This document shows, piece by piece, positions 2,890 through 51,553 of a stretch of DNA of 64,000 nt (position 1 is the first letter of the stretch; each line of letters starts with the position of its first letter). Source of the stretch: Xanthobacteraceae bacterium (GTDB lineage Bacteria; Pseudomonadota; Alphaproteobacteria; Rhizobiales; Xanthobacteraceae); the NCBI GenBank assembly GCA_019746355.1, contig JAIESC010000010.1, positions 69,509 through 133,508 of the forward strand. Reading direction: 5' to 3'. Position numbers and translations under genes: made by a program. Below the pieces are notes generated by a model that saw only the letters and a list, made by a program, of their open reading frames with translations, was not told where the DNA came from and did not search any database.

Positions 2890-4255
2890 CCGGTTGACCT
2901 TCACGCCGCTGCGACCGGCTCTCGTCAAGGAGCTGTGGGCGCTTGCGGGTGGGCGCGCGCTCTGGACGCTGCTGCTGCTCATCTGTCCGCTGGTCGGGTT
3001 CAGCTTCATTCAGGCGCTCCAGCTTTACAGCGAAGCGAGCAGCGCCGCGCAGGATTCGCCCGTCGCCGCGAGCGGGCTTTCGCCGCTGGACGGCATTCTT
3101 GTGCCGACGCTGGGCAGCTTCTATGTCGCGATCACGCTGCTGTTTCCGTTTGTCGCGATCCGCGCGCTCGGCGACGAAAAGGAAACCGGAGCACTCCGCC
3201 TCCTGGTGCAACTGCCATACCGGGTCTCGACGCTGATCGGCATCAAGCTTGCCGCAGTGGCGGCAGCCTGGCTGGTTGCGGCGGCGATCGCCGCGTCCGC
3301 GCTGGCGATCTGGTGGATGCTCGGCGGCCATGTCGGCGTTGCCGAGCTGGCCAATCTTGCCGCCGGCCATCTGCTCTACGGACTGCTGATCGGCTCGATC
3401 GCGCTGTTCGCTTCGGCGATCGCCGAATCCTCGGCCACCGCTGCGATCATCACGCTGGCTTTCACGATCGGATCCTGGGTGCTCGATTTCACGACCGCGG
3501 GAAGCTCCGGCATCGCGGGCCTCCTTTCGCACCTGTCTTTGACGCCGGCATTGCGAACGTTCGAGACCGGGCTCCTCTCCGCCGGTCTGGTGGTGGGGAT
3601 CATTGCGACGATTGGCGGATTTTGCGCCTTGGCGGCCATCTGGCTGCCGCCGGGTGTTGCGTTTCGCAGCAAGCTCCTGCGCTCGATCGTCTGCATCGCC
3701 GTGGTTGCGACCGCGCTGGGCTTTGCCTCCACGCTGCGCGCCACGTTCGACGTCACCGAAGACCAGCGCAATTCCTTCCCCTTGGCCGATCAGCAGTCGC
3801 TGTCGCAACTCAAGGCGCCGTTGCGGATCACCGTGCATCTGTCGGTGGAGGACCCGCGCTACGCCGATCTCAAGCGCAACGTGCTGGCGAAGCTCGAACG
3901 CGTCATGCCGAACGTGACGGTCCGGTTTGCGGAAGGCCTGTTCAGTCCTCGCATCAACCCGAACGATGATCGTTACGGCGAGGTGACGTATGTCTATGGC
4001 CAGCGATCGGACATGAGCCGCTCGACCAGCCACCGCGAAATTCTGCCGCTGATCTACGCGCTCGCGGGCACCGAGCCGCCGGCACCGCTTTCGGCTCCCG
4101 ACTATCCGGGCTACCCGCTCGTCGCGAAAGCGGAGTGGGCCTTGCCGTGGTTCTTCGGCGGCTTGCCGCTGCTGATCGTTCTCGGCTGGTGGTGGAGCCG
4201 CCGCCCTCCGGACATTTCACACCTCACGCAACATCGAGATGGAGGCCATCCATGA
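2876..4255 (+). CDS. ABC-2 permease with GldG-like periplasmic domain
   Basis: About 459 residues from a TTG at 2876, which sits 5-7 nt after a GGAGGAGG run; an in-frame start at 2852 with poorer spacing is also possible. The first ~280 residues have six or so hydrophobic segments and the ABC-2 feature ALGDEKETGALRLLVQLP. After a helix near residue 285, a periplasmic stretch (FDVTEDQRNSFPLADQ, then LRITVHLSVEDPRYADLK) resembles the GldG/ABC_transp_aux module. The protein ends with a helix, ALPWFFGGLPLLIVLGWWW. It therefore looks like a GldF-GldG fusion. It overlaps the ATPase end and the next gene (ATGA at 4252). Confidence 0.75.
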   Translation: MRSPDRLTFTPLRPALVKELWALAGGRALWTLLLLICPLVGFSFIQALQLYSEASSAAQDSPVAASGLSPLDGILVPTLGSFYVAITLLFPFVAIRALGDEKETGALRLLVQLPYRVSTLIGIKLAAVAAAWLVAAAIAASALAIWWMLGGHVGVAELANLAAGHLLYGLLIGSIALFASAIAESSATAAIITLAFTIGSWVLDFTTAGSSGIAGLLSHLSLTPALRTFETGLLSAGLVVGIIATIGGFCALAAIWLPPGVAFRSKLLRSIVCIAVVATALGFASTLRATFDVTEDQRNSFPLADQQSLSQLKAPLRITVHLSVEDPRYADLKRNVLAKLERVMPNVTVRFAEGLFSPRINPNDDRYGEVTYVYGQRSDMSRSTSHREILPLIYALAGTEPPAPLSAPDYPGYPLVAKAEWALPWFFGGLPLLIVLGWWWSRRPPDISHLTQHRDGGHP

Positions 4256-4971
4256 TCGCATCCAGGGCCACGATCCTCGCACTGTTGACCGGCGCGCTGG
4301 TCATCGCCGCGTTTCCGCTCGCGGCCGAACCTCTGACCGTTGATCTCTCGGCGGAGACCGTGGGCGCCGAGCCGAAATCGTTCGTCAGCGTCGTCGGGAT
4401 CTGGCGGATCGAGCAGGAAGGCGGCAAGAAGGTTGTGGCGGTCGACGGACGGCAATGGAAAGAGGGGCAGTCCTCGGCCGGTGTCGCCGACAAGGCCCGC
4501 GCGCTTTACGGCGACCGCTACGCGGAGTTTCTCGACCGGGTGCAGGCCTATGCCTATTTCCCCTATGCCGTGGCGCGAGACGTGCAGGATTTCAAGGGCG
4601 GCGAAATCAGCGTCCGCTTCGAAGGAATTTCCGGCCGCATCGACCAGGGGGCGGGCATCCTGTTCAATCTCAAGACCAACGGCGACTACCTGACGGTTCG
4701 CGCCAATCCGCTCGAGAACAATCTGGTGCTGTGGAAATTCGAAAAGGGCAAGCGTTCTTCGGTGAAGTGGATTCGCAACACGCCGACTCCCAGCCGCGTG
4801 TGGCATGAGTTGAAGGTCCGCATTGCCGGCACCAAGGTCGAAGGCTACCTCAACGGCAAGCTTTATCTCGAGCAGACGCTGGCCGAGCCGGTTTCCGGGC
4901 GCGTCGGGCTGTGGTCGAAGGCGGACAGCTACGTCTTTTTCGACCGCTATACGGCGGCGCCTTCGAACTGA
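4252..4971 (+). CDS. secreted concanavalin-like (DUF1080-type) protein
   Basis: The 239-residue protein has a signal peptide (MIASRATILALLTGALVIAA) ending near AAEP. The mature part reads as a jelly-roll domain of the DUF1080/3-keto-disaccharide hydrolase or laminin-G type: FKGGEISVRFEGISGRIDQG, AGILFNLKTNGDYLTVRANP, then WHELKVRIAGTKVEGYLNGK and SGRVGLWSKADSYVFFDRY. The start overlaps the permease stop (ATGA), so it is the last gene of the exporter operon. A carbohydrate- or polymer-binding role at the envelope is likely, but no catalytic residues could be assigned. The next 564 bp hold no convincing gene. Confidence 0.7.
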   Translation: MIASRATILALLTGALVIAAFPLAAEPLTVDLSAETVGAEPKSFVSVVGIWRIEQEGGKKVVAVDGRQWKEGQSSAGVADKARALYGDRYAEFLDRVQAYAYFPYAVARDVQDFKGGEISVRFEGISGRIDQGAGILFNLKTNGDYLTVRANPLENNLVLWKFEKGKRSSVKWIRNTPTPSRVWHELKVRIAGTKVEGYLNGKLYLEQTLAEPVSGRVGLWSKADSYVFFDRYTAAPSN

Positions 4972-5009
4972 GGCGCGTTCGTCAGCGTGCGGGGCGGGCG
5001 GCCGCGGGG

Positions 5010-5047
5010 TTGACACCGTGTTCTCTTTTTGTTCTATAGTCCCTATC
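5010..5047 (+). promoter_or_regulatory. SOS-box promoter of structured element A
   Basis: TTGACA at 5010-5015 is followed by TATAGT at 5035-5040. Inside the spacer, GTTC-N7-GTTC occupies 5020-5034, which is GAAC-N7-GAAC on the other strand. That is the LexA operator described for alphaproteobacteria (established knowledge). Bound LexA would cover the promoter. The same arrangement is found upstream of element B at 50471-50505. Confidence 0.7.
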
Positions 5048-5095
5048 CTGCTCAATCGAGGACGTCGTCGATCGCGACATTCGACGAGGGAGCAG

Positions 5096-5402
5096 GATGC
5101 GGTGCCCGACAACTGGCATCGCGTTGGAGCGCCGGGAGGCGCCGGGCCCCTCGCAAGGGCCCCGCGCCCCGGGACCCCCACCCCCCTCAAAGCCTATGGG
5201 TCCCGGAATCTTGGCGCGGGATCGGCCGATCGCAAGGCCGGTCCGGGAGCTTCGCACGCTCCCGGCGCCTCTCGGCGCTCCAACCCCTCTTTTCGAGGGG
5301 AAGGAAAAGCGGTCCCCGCGGAGGCGGGGAGGGAAACGGCGGGCCGGCCCGGGCGCCCGAATAGAAGGCCCGGGGCGATGAAGCGTGTCTGCCGGGCTGT
5401 TT
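5096..5402 (+). ncRNA. structured non-coding element A (four-arm multibranch RNA)
   Basis: A long helix (5124-5143 with 5264-5283, one G-U) closes a loop made of four contiguous hairpins. Arm 1 is 5144-5149/5157-5162. Arm 2 is 5162-5177/5198-5219, in two parts. Arm 3 is 5219-5227/5236-5244, with one U-G. Arm 4 is 5245-5250/5258-5263. A 5' helix GATGC/GCATC (5096-5100/5116-5120) precedes it. A hairpin CCCCTC/GAGGGG (5284-5289/5295-5300) and TCCCCGC/GCGGGGA (5313-5319/5324-5330) follow. A weak GCCCGG/CCGGGC stem with TGTTT at 5368-5402 may end it. Element B has the same plan with different arm sequences. Reading frames through it (ALERREAPGP...) are low-complexity, and I do not call them genes. 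Confidence 0.65.
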
Positions 5403-5473
5403 GACAGGTGAATACGTGATGCGTGCGCAGAACGGGTTGCCCGCCCAGCGGGCTTGTCCGGTCGGGCCAAGCG

Positions 5474-6555
<1,082 letters not shown>

Positions 6556-6589
6556 TCCAAGGCGGATCACCCCCCTGTCGGATCGTTCA

Positions 6590-6617
6590 ACGGGCCCGCC
6601 TTGGCGGGCCCGTTTTT
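6590..6617 (+). terminator. Rho-independent terminator of ilvC
   Basis: ACGGGCCCGCC (6590-6600) pairs with GGCGGGCCCGT (6603-6613) across a 2-nt gap, followed by a T run to 6617. It lies 35 nt after the ilvC stop. Confidence 0.9.
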
Positions 6618-49365: not shown

Positions 49366-50364
49366 ATGCTGAAGCGACTTGCTGCCGCCGCGTTGGCCGC
49401 GGCGTGTGTCATGTCCACGGCCGCGCAGGCCCAACAACAGGACGTCAAATTCATCCTCGACTTCATCAGCCTCGGCCGCCACGCGCCGTGGTACGTCGCG
49501 CTCGGCAAGGGTTATTTCAAAGAGGAGGGATTGAACGTCACGATCCTGCCGTCCAAGGGCACGGCGGACGCAATCCGTTCAGTCGCGACAGGCACGACCG
49601 AGCTCGGCTTCATCGACGTTCCAAGCCTCGTCGCCGCGGGCAACGCCGCATCGGCGGTGAAGATCGTCGCCGCGAACTATCAGAAGCCGCCCTACTGCAT
49701 CTTCAGCCTCAATCCCGGCGCCAACATCGACACCGCGAAGAAGCTCACCAATCTCGAGCTCGGCTCCAGCAGCGCGTCGTTCGTGCCGAAGATCTGGGCC
49801 GCGATCATGGAAATGAACGGCGTCGACAGCAAGACCATGAAGATCGTCAACATCGATCCTGCGGCACGCGTGCCGATGCTGGCGACACGTAAGGTCGCCT
49901 CGATCGACCTGTTCATCATGAGCGAGCCGGCGATCCGCCGCGCCGTCCCCGACAGCAAGCCGGTCTGCCTGTTCGCCGGCGATCTCGGGCTTGAGATCTA
50001 CGCCAACTCGATCGGCGTCAACGAAGAGTTCCTGAAAAAGAATCCCGAAGCCGTCAAAAAGTTCGTGCGCGCCGCGCTGCGCGGCTGGAAGGACACCTTC
50101 GCCAATCCACAGGAGGCGGCGCAGATCCAGCTGCAGCACGTCAAGGCGCTCGATCCGCAGATCATCGTCGAGGAGATCGAGATCCTGCGCCGCGTCGCGC
50201 TGACGCCGGAGGTGCAGAAGGGCGGCCTTGGGCTTATCACCAGGGAGCGGATGAAGAACACTGTCGACTTCATCAACAAGAACATCGAGGTGCCCGGCGA
50301 GAAGCTGACCGCCGAGCAAATTTACGTTCCGGGCTTCCTGCCGGAGAAGCCGGTTCTGCCGTAG
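49366..50364 (+). CDS. ABC importer solute-binding protein (NMT1/SsuA-like)
   Basis: The 332-residue receptor (ATG after AGGAGGG) has a signal peptide MLKRLAAAALAAACVMSTAA ending AQA. The mature part begins QDVKFILDFISLGRHAPWYV, then ALGKGYFKEEGLNVTILPSK and TADAIRSVATGTTELGFIDV, the NMT1 first lobe. A later segment reads LEIYANSIGVNEEFLKKNPE. The HAPWYVALGKGYF motif recalls receptors for aromatic or pyrimidine-like ligands. It is transcribed away from its ATPase and permease and shares their operator region. Confidence 0.9.
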   Translation: MLKRLAAAALAAACVMSTAAQAQQQDVKFILDFISLGRHAPWYVALGKGYFKEEGLNVTILPSKGTADAIRSVATGTTELGFIDVPSLVAAGNAASAVKIVAANYQKPPYCIFSLNPGANIDTAKKLTNLELGSSSASFVPKIWAAIMEMNGVDSKTMKIVNIDPAARVPMLATRKVASIDLFIMSEPAIRRAVPDSKPVCLFAGDLGLEIYANSIGVNEEFLKKNPEAVKKFVRAALRGWKDTFANPQEAAQIQLQHVKALDPQIIVEEIEILRRVALTPEVQKGGLGLITRERMKNTVDFINKNIEVPGEKLTAEQIYVPGFLPEKPVLP

Positions 50365-50470
50365 GCAGCAAATCCGTCAGCCCGCCGTGCCCGCCGATGG
50401 CATGCGGCGGGCACGGCGGCGCAACGAAGGATGTCGTTGCCGCGACAGGCAGCCGGCCGCGGCGCACGGG

Positions 50471-50510
50471 TTGACAGCTTTCCTGATATAGAACATAACA
50501 AGAACAATCT
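50471..50510 (+). promoter_or_regulatory. SOS-box promoter of structured element B
   Basis: TTGACA at 50471-50476, then GAAC-N7-GAAC at 50491-50505, a consensus alphaproteobacterial LexA operator. With 17-nt spacing the -10 (CATAAC, 50494-50499) lies inside the box. A TATA string lies at 50487-50490. The order TTGACA then SOS box repeats that of element A at 5010-5040. Confidence 0.7.
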
Positions 50511-50545
50511 TCTTGCCGGATTTCAGGTCCGGTGAGGAAACGAGG

Positions 50546-50819
50546 GATGCGCGAGCGCGGGAGACCATGGCCCCGCTCGCCGCATCTCTGGTGGAGCGCC
50601 GGGAGGCGCCGCACCCCTGCGTCATTGGGGTGCAGCGCGCCTCCGCACAAGGCGCGCGGCGGACCCGGTGGTCCGCAGGGCCCTACGTCACTGGGCCCGG
50701 CGTCTCCCGGCGCTCCATTCCCTCGTTCCGAGGGAGACGGAAAAAGGGGAAAGGGCGAGCCCGGCAGCCCGAAAAAGTGAAGCGGCCGGGCGGCATAGCA
50801 TTGGCTATGCTGCTGTTTT
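50546..50819 (+). ncRNA. structured non-coding element B (four-arm multibranch RNA)
   Basis: A 5' helix GATGC-GCGAGCG/CGCTCGC-GCATC (50546-50557/50574-50586) is followed by a long closing helix, 50593-50610 with 50699-50716, one G-U. It encloses exactly four hairpins: 50611-50617/50627-50633, 50635-50642/50650-50657, 50659-50665/50670-50676 and 50678-50683/50693-50698. A TCCCTCG/CGAGGGA hairpin (50719-50725/50729-50735) comes next. A possible terminator GCATAGC/GCTATGC with TGCTGTTTT ends at 50819. The plan is that of element A, with different arm sequences. The remainder of the 541-bp gap (50365-50470 and 50820-50861) shows no gene. Confidence 0.65.
50793..50819 (+). terminator. possible terminator of element B
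   Basis: GCATAGC (50793-50799), ATTG loop region, GCTATGC (50804-50810), then TGCTGTTTT. The moderate stem with T4 would release a transcript of about 310 nt. Confidence 0.5.
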
Positions 50820-50861
50820 GGAAGTGAAATCCGATGTCGCTTGACGAATCCACGCGCTCAT

Positions 50862-50881
50862 GAGAATGAACGTTCATTCTC
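50862..50881. promoter_or_regulatory. perfect 20-bp palindrome, TetR operator
   Basis: GAGAATGAAC followed directly by its exact inverse GTTCATTCTC, 25 nt before the TetR ATG. TetR repressors of RND pumps typically bind such AATGAAC-centred palindromes, so autoregulation of the regulator-pump operon is expected. Confidence 0.8.
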
Positions 50882-50905
50882 TTTCATTGTGCGACGCACC
50901 AATCC

Positions 50906-51553
50906 ATGAACGCCACGGCCGTTTCAAGCCCGGTCCGCGCGCAGCGGCAATCCGACCGCCGCGCGGAAATCCTCGAGGCGGCGCAGCGCTGCTTTGTGCG
51001 CGCGGGCTTCCACCAGACCTCGATGCAGGAGATATGCGCCGAGGCCGGCATGAGCGCGGGCAACCTCTACCGCTACTTCCCCTCCAAGGAGGCGCTGATC
51101 GCCGGCATCGCCGAGCGCGACCGCGCCGAGGTGGCGCAGGACTTTGCCCGGGCCGATCTGTCCCAGGGCTTGTTCAACGTGCTGGAGGGCATGGCGCATT
51201 ACCACTTTGCGGTGCGGCCGATCGAGCAGGTGAGGCTTTGCACCGAGGTGATGTCGGAGGCGCGCCGCCACCCGAAGATCGCGCGGATTTCCGCGGCCTT
51301 CGACGCCGATGTCCGCAAATGGCTGATCGACATGTTCAACACCGCGGCCGAGCGCGGCGATATCCCGAAGGATGCCGACATCGAAGGCGCGGTCGACATG
51401 CTGATGATCCTGGCCGACGGCGTCTGGTGGCGTCGCGCGCTCGATCCGAACTTCAAGGCCGGTGCGCTCATCCCGGTGTTCATGGATGTCGCGCGGCATC
51501 TGCTGCGTAGCCGCTCGCAAGATCAGCGTGCGGAGGGGGAGAAGTCGTCATGA
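50906..51553 (+). CDS. TetR family repressor of the RND operon
   Basis: The 215-residue regulator has a helix-turn-helix at about residues 18-65 (RAEILEAAQRCFVRAGFHQT, MQEICAEAGMSAGNLYRYFP, SKEALIAGIAERD). The C-terminal helical ligand domain (EQVRLCTEVMSEARRHPKIA, then VDMLMILADGVWWRRAL) belongs to the TetR_C group seen with efflux pumps. Its TGA overlaps the ATG of the adaptor gene (ATGA at 51550-51553). A perfect palindrome precedes it. Confidence 0.93.
   Translation: MNATAVSSPVRAQRQSDRRAEILEAAQRCFVRAGFHQTSMQEICAEAGMSAGNLYRYFPSKEALIAGIAERDRAEVAQDFARADLSQGLFNVLEGMAHYHFAVRPIEQVRLCTEVMSEARRHPKIARISAAFDADVRKWLIDMFNTAAERGDIPKDADIEGAVDMLMILADGVWWRRALDPNFKAGALIPVFMDVARHLLRSRSQDQRAEGEKSS

What the first reader, a model, noticed from the sequence alone, without database searches (positions are those of the whole stretch)
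5010..5402. SOS-box-controlled multibranch RNA element A
A promoter overlapped by a consensus alphaproteobacterial LexA box leads straight into a ~300-nt region that has no credible gene but folds, by direct reading, into one long closing helix enclosing four back-to-back hairpins with no unpaired bases to spare between arms. Accessory hairpins flank it. This is not a terminator, attenuator or REP-like palindrome. I cannot match it to an RNA class I know.
Basis: partly seen in the sequence, partly recalled or inferred. Interest (0 to 1): 0.88.

Follow-up and report, generated by a model that had tools for sequence, protein, structure and literature searches.

The report
Damage-switched multicopy structured RNA family
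The spot holds a member of a scattered family of intricately folded RNA genes, found in no RNA catalogue searched here, that carries what looks like the DNA-damage switch on its promoter and ends in a signal otherwise known from ribosomal RNA genes; its role is unknown, which makes it worth testing.

Summary
Element A (5010-5413) and a second element B (50471-50830) fold far better than shuffles (z -6.4, -7.4), and the window's only two LexA boxes sit on their promoters. They belong to a dispersed noncoding RNA family without Rfam match. A model of its 3' domain matches 71 of 244 family genomes (a lower bound) and 1 of 386 others of the class; the closed genome G005 carries about 44 copies, short (~330-370 nt) and long (~480 nt).

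LexA boxes occur in 34 of 35 short copies of the window, G001 and G005, and in 0 of 37 from 21 other genomes, including same-genus ones, where other operator-like palindromes stand. The box lies in several registers relative to -35, pointing to repeated gain. Arms covary (0 of 500 shuffles). The 3' end can be an rrn boxA: 24 nt of A equal the G005 rRNA leader; 29 of 32 boxA sites in G005 lie at such elements. Copies lie mostly after genes and differ between orthologous sites.

Best reading: a repressor-silenced, multicopy stable-RNA gene family, released together on DNA damage, its boxA loading NusB-S10. Anatomy is shown; expression, function and mobility are inferred. No target-site duplication; pseudoknot only suggestive.

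The parts
5010..5040 (+). Element A promoter: -35 TTGACA 5010-5015, LexA box 5020-5034, likely -10 TATAGT 5035-5040
   Evidence: register compared over 33 promoters
5020..5034 (+). LexA (SOS) box GTTC-N7-GTTC of element A
   Evidence: present in 34 of 35 short copies of window, G001 and G005
5045..5098 (+). H1, 5' hairpin
   Evidence: fold; this region varies among copies
5099..5122 (+). H2 hairpin, loop CGACAACT; in the long form this hairpin appears to be expanded by ~200 nt (reading by eye)
   Evidence: comparison with long copies
5125..5282 (+). Multibranch core: closing helix 5125-5142/5265-5282 and four arms (5144-5162, 5163-5218, 5219-5244, 5245-5263)
   Evidence: covariation; 56 of 60 unique cores have exactly four arms
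5284..5300 (+). H4 hairpin, followed by a GGAAAA strand
   Evidence: alignment
5340..5375 (+). Candidate H-type pseudoknot (S1 5340-5344/5355-5359; S2 5348-5353/5369-5374)
   Evidence: read by eye; statistical support only suggestive
5390..5413 (+). rrn-type boxA at the 3' end, 24 nt identical to the G005 rRNA leader
   Evidence: genome-wide specificity
50471..50505 (+). Element B promoter: -35 TTGACA 50471-50476 and LexA box 50491-50505 (GAAC-N7-GAAC)
50510..50591 (+). Element B H1 (50510-50538) and H2 (about 50540-50591)
   Evidence: fold
50592..50717 (+). Element B multibranch core, closing helix 50592-50609/50700-50717, four arms
50753..50791 (+). Element B candidate pseudoknot
   Evidence: suggestive only
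50812..50830 (+). Element B degenerate boxA-like end GCTGTTTTGGAAGTGAAAT
   Evidence: read by eye

Best explanation
Elements A and B are two loci of a dispersed, multicopy family of large structured noncoding RNA genes in GTDB Xanthobacteraceae. Each copy is its own transcription unit: a sigma-70 promoter held off by a repressor (LexA in the window's organism, G001 and G005; other operator-like sites elsewhere), an RNA of 5' hairpins, a multibranch core, a candidate pseudoknot and, at the 3' end of many copies, an rRNA-operon boxA. Shown by sequence: family, copy number, LexA boxes, covarying structure, boxA identity, presence and absence at the same sites. Inferred: DNA damage inactivates LexA and the copies fire together; the RNA accumulates as an RNP; its boxA binds NusB-S10 as the rrn leader does, so that the burst competes with rRNA synthesis for Nus factors (a brake on ribosome production during damage) and/or lets polymerase read on past the element. 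My odds: repressor-silenced ncRNA gene family 0.85; acts in trans as an RNP 0.45; Nus-factor titration in particular 0.2-0.25.
For: Fold z -6.4 and -7.4. Arms covary: 98.4% of 828 cells paired, 10 of 52 pairs with double changes, 0 of 500 shuffles on any of five measures. LexA box in 25/26 G001, 7/7 G005 and 2/2 window short copies, 0/37 in 21 other genomes, starting +10, +14/15, +18/20 or +29/30 from TTGAC (28 of 33 promoters; in five G005 copies no TTGAC was found): this points to repeated gain. The lexA loci carry this box in 10 of 10 genomes. boxA: 17 of 68 short copies against 0 antisense and 0 of 69 upstream controls; 13 of 20 long G005 copies, 470-515 nt from the operator; of 32 boxA sites in G005, 29 lie at elements, 1 in the rrn leader, 2 unassigned, reversed-pattern control 0.
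Against: No expression data. 51 of 68 short copies show no boxA at this stringency, so it cannot be needed by every copy. A 3'-terminal boxA is in the wrong place to help transcription of the RNA itself. In other genomes, even of the same genus (G002, G004, G007-G011), no copy parsed has a LexA box, so SOS control is not a family trait. The LexA motif alone is not specific (187 sites against 214 reversed in G005). H1 is beyond z -2 in only 2 of 12 copies. Copy number, presence/absence and lack of shared neighbours fit a selfish element as well.
Confidence: 0.45

Rival explanations
1. A selfish dispersal element: the unit from promoter to boxA is copied in trans by a transposase, recombinase or reverse transcriptase; the host silences it with whatever repressor sits on its promoter, and the folded RNA or folded DNA strand is what the copying machinery recognises.
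For: One to about 44 copies per genome; homology begins at the promoter and ends near boxA; sites differ between relatives (tatC-serS filled in G007 and G008, not in G005; the site before ilvC filled in window and G001, not in 7 other genomes read); several matches start about 95 nt from a contig end, as repeats do; an IS1595-like transposase gene shares the promoter type in G070.
Against: No target-site duplication in 13 long copies (mean shared word 4.77 against 4.65 permuted); no conserved ORF; terminal inverted repeats were not noticed but not formally tested; no hits in viral, phage or plasmid collections. The first 45 nt after the box are 64% alike while cores are 96% alike among 11 G001 copies and element B, unlike simple recent copying.
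Confidence: 0.3
2. An outward-reading cassette: the boxA end makes the polymerase Rho-resistant so that the SOS promoter drives, or silences by antisense, the flanking gene (ilvC at A, a TetR-type gene at B).
For: boxA lies at the 3' boundary in the direction of read-through; both window copies face a co-directional gene.
Against: The downstream gene is co-directional in only 25 of 47 copies; ilvC has its own upstream promoter-like block in relatives without the element; clustering found few neighbour genes shared among loci beyond common transporters and the tatC-serS site.
Confidence: 0.12
3. A DNA-level element (REP/MITE-like hairpin DNA, recombination or replication site) whose promoter and RNA are incidental.
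For: GC-rich 18-bp inverted repeat conserved in sequence (partly by ascertainment); intergenic, mostly after genes.
Against: LexA box at 34 of 35 copies that were found without regard to the promoter; strand-specific boxA (0 antisense); covariation with G-U pairs; recurring hairpin loops such as CUCGCAA, GAUCGCAA and GUAA.
Confidence: 0.08

Closest known systems
rRNA operon leader boxA / Nus antitermination complex
   Same: 24 nt of element A equal the G005 rrn leader around boxA. PMC5725501 (passages read): NusB/E binds boxA in nascent rRNA upstream of 16S and 23S, and boxA also acts at suhB and other genes
   Different: Here boxA is at the 3' end of the RNA rather than ahead of it, and no rRNA follows
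LexA-controlled small RNAs (such as IstR of E. coli, recalled)
   Same: LexA box on an ncRNA promoter
   Different: Here many dispersed, large, multibranch copies; no toxin partner noticed
Large ornate bacterial RNAs (GOLLD, ROOL, OLE, HEARO; recalled)
   Same: Long, multi-stem, function unclear or unusual
   Different: No Rfam match; multicopy with operator-bearing promoters
Br-REP1/Br-REP2 of Bradyrhizobium (PMC5082802; abstract and passages read)
   Same: Intergenic, palindromic, high copy, in 3'-UTR regions
   Different: Short palindromes (the printed consensus sequences are 20 and about 40 nt), against units of about 360-515 nt with a promoter here

Membership tests
LexA (SOS) regulon, alphaproteobacterial type | GTTC-N7-GTTC box at the core promoter | tested here: met
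   same box at the lexA loci of 10 of 10 genomes
LexA (SOS) regulon, alphaproteobacterial type | LexA binding and induction by DNA damage | not testable with these tools
   no expression or binding data
Any Rfam 15 RNA family | covariance-model score at or above gathering | tested here: not met
   window: only a tRNA elsewhere; permissive scans of members gave no match at gathering
Intrinsic terminator / attenuator | G+C hairpin followed by T-run | tested here: not met
   one hit, in the promoter, 0.6 expected
Transposon, IS or MITE | target-site duplication | tested here: not met
   13 long copies with both ends defined
Transposon, IS or MITE | terminal inverted repeats | not tested
   none noticed in the alignments
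Transposon, IS or MITE | dispersed copies with presence/absence at orthologous sites | tested here: met
REP / REPIN | short palindromic unit (tens of nt) | tested here: not met
   unit is about 360-515 nt with promoter
rrn boxA (NusB-S10 site) | sequence identity to an rrn boxA of the same genus | tested here: met
rrn boxA (NusB-S10 site) | NusB-S10 binding, Rho resistance | not testable with these tools
   bench assay needed
Protein-coding gene | conserved reading frame among copies | tested here: not met
   16 of 28 indel events in the core between element B and 11 copies are not multiples of three; open frames of 6-110 codons (median 81) occur in 60 unique copies, as GC-rich sequence gives
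H-type pseudoknot | loop-to-3' pairing that covaries | tested here: inconclusive
   5-mer test 43 of 2000 and 4-mer test 305 of 2000 permutations reach the observed value; loop-restricted 26 of 1000, one-per-genome draws 22-72 of 500

The most novel reading that the evidence does not exclude
A new class of bacterial genetic element whose unit is a repressor-silenced structured RNA gene: it multiplies in the genome, repeatedly captures host stress operators (LexA here), and uses an rRNA boxA so that its RNA forms a Nus-factor RNP, either as a genome-wide damage-triggered RNA burst or as an RNA-based selfish element (a bacterial counterpart of SINEs).
Probability: 0.35. Interest if true: 0.95.

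Novelty: categorically new. Interest (0 to 1): 0.86.

Why it matters
If transcribed, the SOS response of these bacteria would include dozens of loci making one kind of folded RNA at once. That would tie DNA damage to the rRNA transcription machinery through an exact copy of its boxA, would be a case of one regulatory switch acquired again and again by one RNA family, and leaves clear questions for the bench (does the RNA appear after mitomycin C, and does it bind NusB-S10?) in a family without an Rfam entry.

Tried and rejected
Plasmid and phage collections gave no match for short or long form (one query each), nor did the exact short-form pattern in viral contigs. Rfam at permissive thresholds gave only chance-level matches. 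A search for target-site duplications was negative (one search was the same test with a wrong pattern and ended in an error). A free search for pseudoknots separated real from shuffled tails poorly (of 70 each, real scores mostly 11-14 with 3 empty, shuffled mostly 10-12 with 14 empty), hence the permutation tests, which are only suggestive. The consensus fold of the 3' domain was useless, probably because the alignment shifts there; model R1 has 6 base pairs, none of a helix that I believe in, and is in effect a sequence profile.

Clustering of neighbouring proteins found no partner gene shared by many copies; the largest clusters are two transporter-like families and, with five loci, the tatC-serS site. 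I looked for the regulator behind the TTCCTA-type promoters: 12 of 12 exact sites in G145 (6 read, 6 by a closing-arm match nearby) and 14 of 15 in G070 (9 read, 5 by an R1 match) belong to the family, so no regulator gene showed itself. L207, L212, L215 and L216 were judged by eye from H1 and H2, since no closing arm was found.

The apparent invariance of the outer closing helix is partly ascertainment: most copies were fetched by that sequence, and required 16 of 18 pairs. Even so its positions 12 and 13 hold 9 and 10 non-standard cells of 94. Members found by boxA in G093 have another closing helix. The 71 of 244 tally is likewise a lower bound: G016, with no match and listed without a match, carries boxA-ended structured units. 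G001 is a draft with 9% contamination, so its copies may mix strains. Rows dropped: the parser kept 84 copies (73 unique, 72 of them with enough upstream sequence for the LexA count; 60 unique cores). Eight of the 70 loci (L052, L058, L069, L070, L081, L092, L106, L108) were not kept by its filter; six were looked at, of which L052 and L069 cannot be called members with confidence. One search fetched only 7 of the short G005 copies.

Full report
Observation. Reading 3800-6600 and 50000-51500 confirms the promoter, the LexA box and the multibranch fold at 5010-5402 and a second such element at 50471-50830. RNA folding gives z -6.41 (A, 376 nt) and -7.43 (B, 331 nt), with 0 of 100 shuffles as stable in either case. 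Exactly two GTTC-N7-GTTC sites occur in 64 kb, at 5020 and 50491; about two are expected by chance, but both fall on the element promoters. Rfam finds only a tRNA in the window. A profile of the 3' domain (R1) run over the whole window with filters off finds the two elements and, antisense, their 5' arms; the next match has E 0.24.

Family. Blastn of B against 61 related genomes matched 25, with up to 23 match pieces in one genome. A pattern with both closing arms over GTDB genome contigs gave 70 stretches in records labelled Xanthobacteraceae, Pseudorhodoplanes, Pseudolabrys, Rhodoplanes, Afipia, Rhodopseudomonas, Rhizobiales, Hyphomicrobiales or Alphaproteobacteria, and one labelled Marinimicrobia that matches a Rhodoplanes record at 100% over 6,002 and 1,340 nt. 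With R1 at E<=1e-4, 71 of 244 genomes of the family (19 of 41 genera) are positive, and of 387 genomes of the class only G001 and one weak match of 33 bits. At most 16 candidates per genome were scored (10), so copy numbers there are lower bounds. The closing-arm pattern with one mismatch matches G001 36/37 times (forward/reverse) and the closed genome G005 31/25 times, against 0-2 for the reversed pattern in 14 genomes. For G005, 12 places with the exact 3' arm (short form in the seven fetched), 25 long copies with one operator type (16 read, 9 by a closing-arm match) and 7 long copies with a LexA box (L133, L139, L239, L240, L248, L249, L250) add up to 44.

Forms. Short copies carry H1, H2, a core of about 120-185 nt with exactly four arms in 56 of 60 unique cores (3 with five, 1 with three), H4, a GGAAA strand, a candidate pseudoknot and a 3' tail. 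Long copies (seen in G005, G145, G158, G247) have a similar closing helix with two arms in 87-90 nt and an extra 5' domain of about 200 nt that looks like an expansion of H2. In G093 and G016, sites found by boxA alone uncover further kin with a different centre and a similar promoter and H1 and, in G093, the same kind of 3' part (six of nine G093 and four G016 units aligned). None of nine loci (seven of these and two from G070) given to Rfam matched.

Structure evidence. On 16 A-type cores, 98.4% of 828 cells pair, 10 of 52 pairs show changes on both sides, and all five measures exceed all 500 shuffles; sliding the partners by one base drops pairing to 46-47%. The double changes lie in arms 3 and 4; the closing helix hardly varies in this set. 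Over 94 members its positions 11 and 13 show six and four standard pair types, but the set was chosen by this helix. Hairpin loops recur: CUCGCAA 40 times, GAUCGCAA 22, GUAA 19, UACGUCACU 15. The pseudoknot rests on consistent reading in many copies but weak statistics. H1 of 12 B-type copies has z from -0.3 to -3.5 against simple shuffles, beyond -2 in two.

Control. In short copies the exact LexA box lies within 150 nt upstream of the core in 25 of 26 from G001 (the 26th has one mismatch), 7 of 7 from G005, 2 of 2 from the window, and 0 of 37 from 21 other genomes; chance for such a stretch is about 0.005. Some of the 21 are of the same genus: L007, L003, L002, L004, L005 and L006 (G004, G011, G010, G008, G002, G007) are the same loci as named records, and none of their parsed copies has the box. 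By ilvC, G001 (100%) and G005 (93%) are the window's nearest held kin. In 33 distinct LexA promoters the box starts +10 (2), +14/15 (6), +18/20 (12) or +29/30 (8) from TTGAC; in five G005 copies no TTGAC was found and the box may overlap the -35. That points to repeated gain of the same switch. Genome-wide the motif by itself says little (187 sites against 214 reversed in G005). Elsewhere the promoters carry TTGAC-N2-TATTCCTA with TAGGA, or CTTATCCCCG repeats, or in G005 long copies TTTGCATT-N2-CGCAAATCACG: all 25 G005 sites with at most one mismatch belong to the family, including one that looks truncated (L227) and one interrupted (L234). That these are operators is inferred from position and symmetry.

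boxA. The G005 rrn leader reads TGCCGGGCTGTTTGACAGGTGAAT, identical over 24 nt to window 5390-5413. Downstream of short cores a match with at most one mismatch occurs in 17 of 68 copies, in 0 antisense and in 0 of 69 upstream controls. In long G005 copies 13 of 20 tested show it, ending 470-515 nt from the operator. In the whole of G005 there are 32 sites: 29 near elements, 1 in the rrn leader, 2 unassigned (6680964, 569744), none for the reversed pattern (most assigned by coordinates, four by reading L247-L250). G093 has 18, G016 8, G034 2 and G145 0 such sites; G145 members carry a variant, CTGTTTGAAAATCGAA. Most short copies lack boxA, which counts against a single boxA-based function.

Place in the genome. 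By a heuristic gene call, of 47 copies with both neighbours called (L054 and L087 are one copy counted twice) the upstream gene is on the same strand in 38 and the downstream gene in 25: 21 tandem-sense, 17 convergent, 5 tandem-antisense, 4 divergent. Element A precedes a gene I read as ilvC (recalled from its protein). G001 has the 3' part of an element there, at a contig end; seven other genomes of the genus (G002, G004-G008, G010) have none and keep a similar block just before the gene. At tatC-serS (names recalled from the proteins) G007, G008, G070 and G083 have a copy; G005, G247, G037, G196 and G093 have only a short gap, G145 and G206 a longer one without the arm. No target duplication was found.

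Interpretation. The simplest account of promoter, LexA box, covariation and strand-specific boxA is a family of ncRNA genes silenced by a repressor. Among 11 G001 copies and element B, cores are 96% alike while the first 45 nt after the box are 64% alike, which suggests homogenised cores in otherwise old loci. Whether the family is kept for the host (for example as a damage-time decoy for NusB-S10) or for itself cannot be decided here; I lean slightly to a trans-acting RNP. Literature: searches (listings seen); outline and passages of PMC5082802 and passages of PMC5725501 read; six terms looked up in PMC8632094 did not occur. Nothing seen describes such a family. The library lacks most subscription papers, so a printed description elsewhere is possible.

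Noticed in passing
   Followed up: partly
   Followed up: partly
L054 and L087: A contig labelled Candidatus Marinimicrobia is identical over kilobases to one labelled Rhodoplanes piscinae: probably a misassigned contig.
   Followed up: no
window 5536-6136: This stretch is 100% identical to G001 over 601 nt although only 32% of the window's sampled 31-letter words are shared with that genome.
   Followed up: no
L133, L135, L136, L137, L141: These long elements are followed by similar REP-like palindromes (GTCATTGCCGGGC...).
   Followed up: no
window 5144-5263 and cores: Many arm loops are the 7-mer CUCGCAA, which has the form of a tRNA anticodon loop (C-U-NNN-A-A; recalled); several copies show it in two arms.
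   Followed up: partly
L040, L041: LexA-type promoters of G001 that still read TTGACAATATTCCT, the start of the other promoter type, as if a LexA box arose inside it.
   Followed up: no
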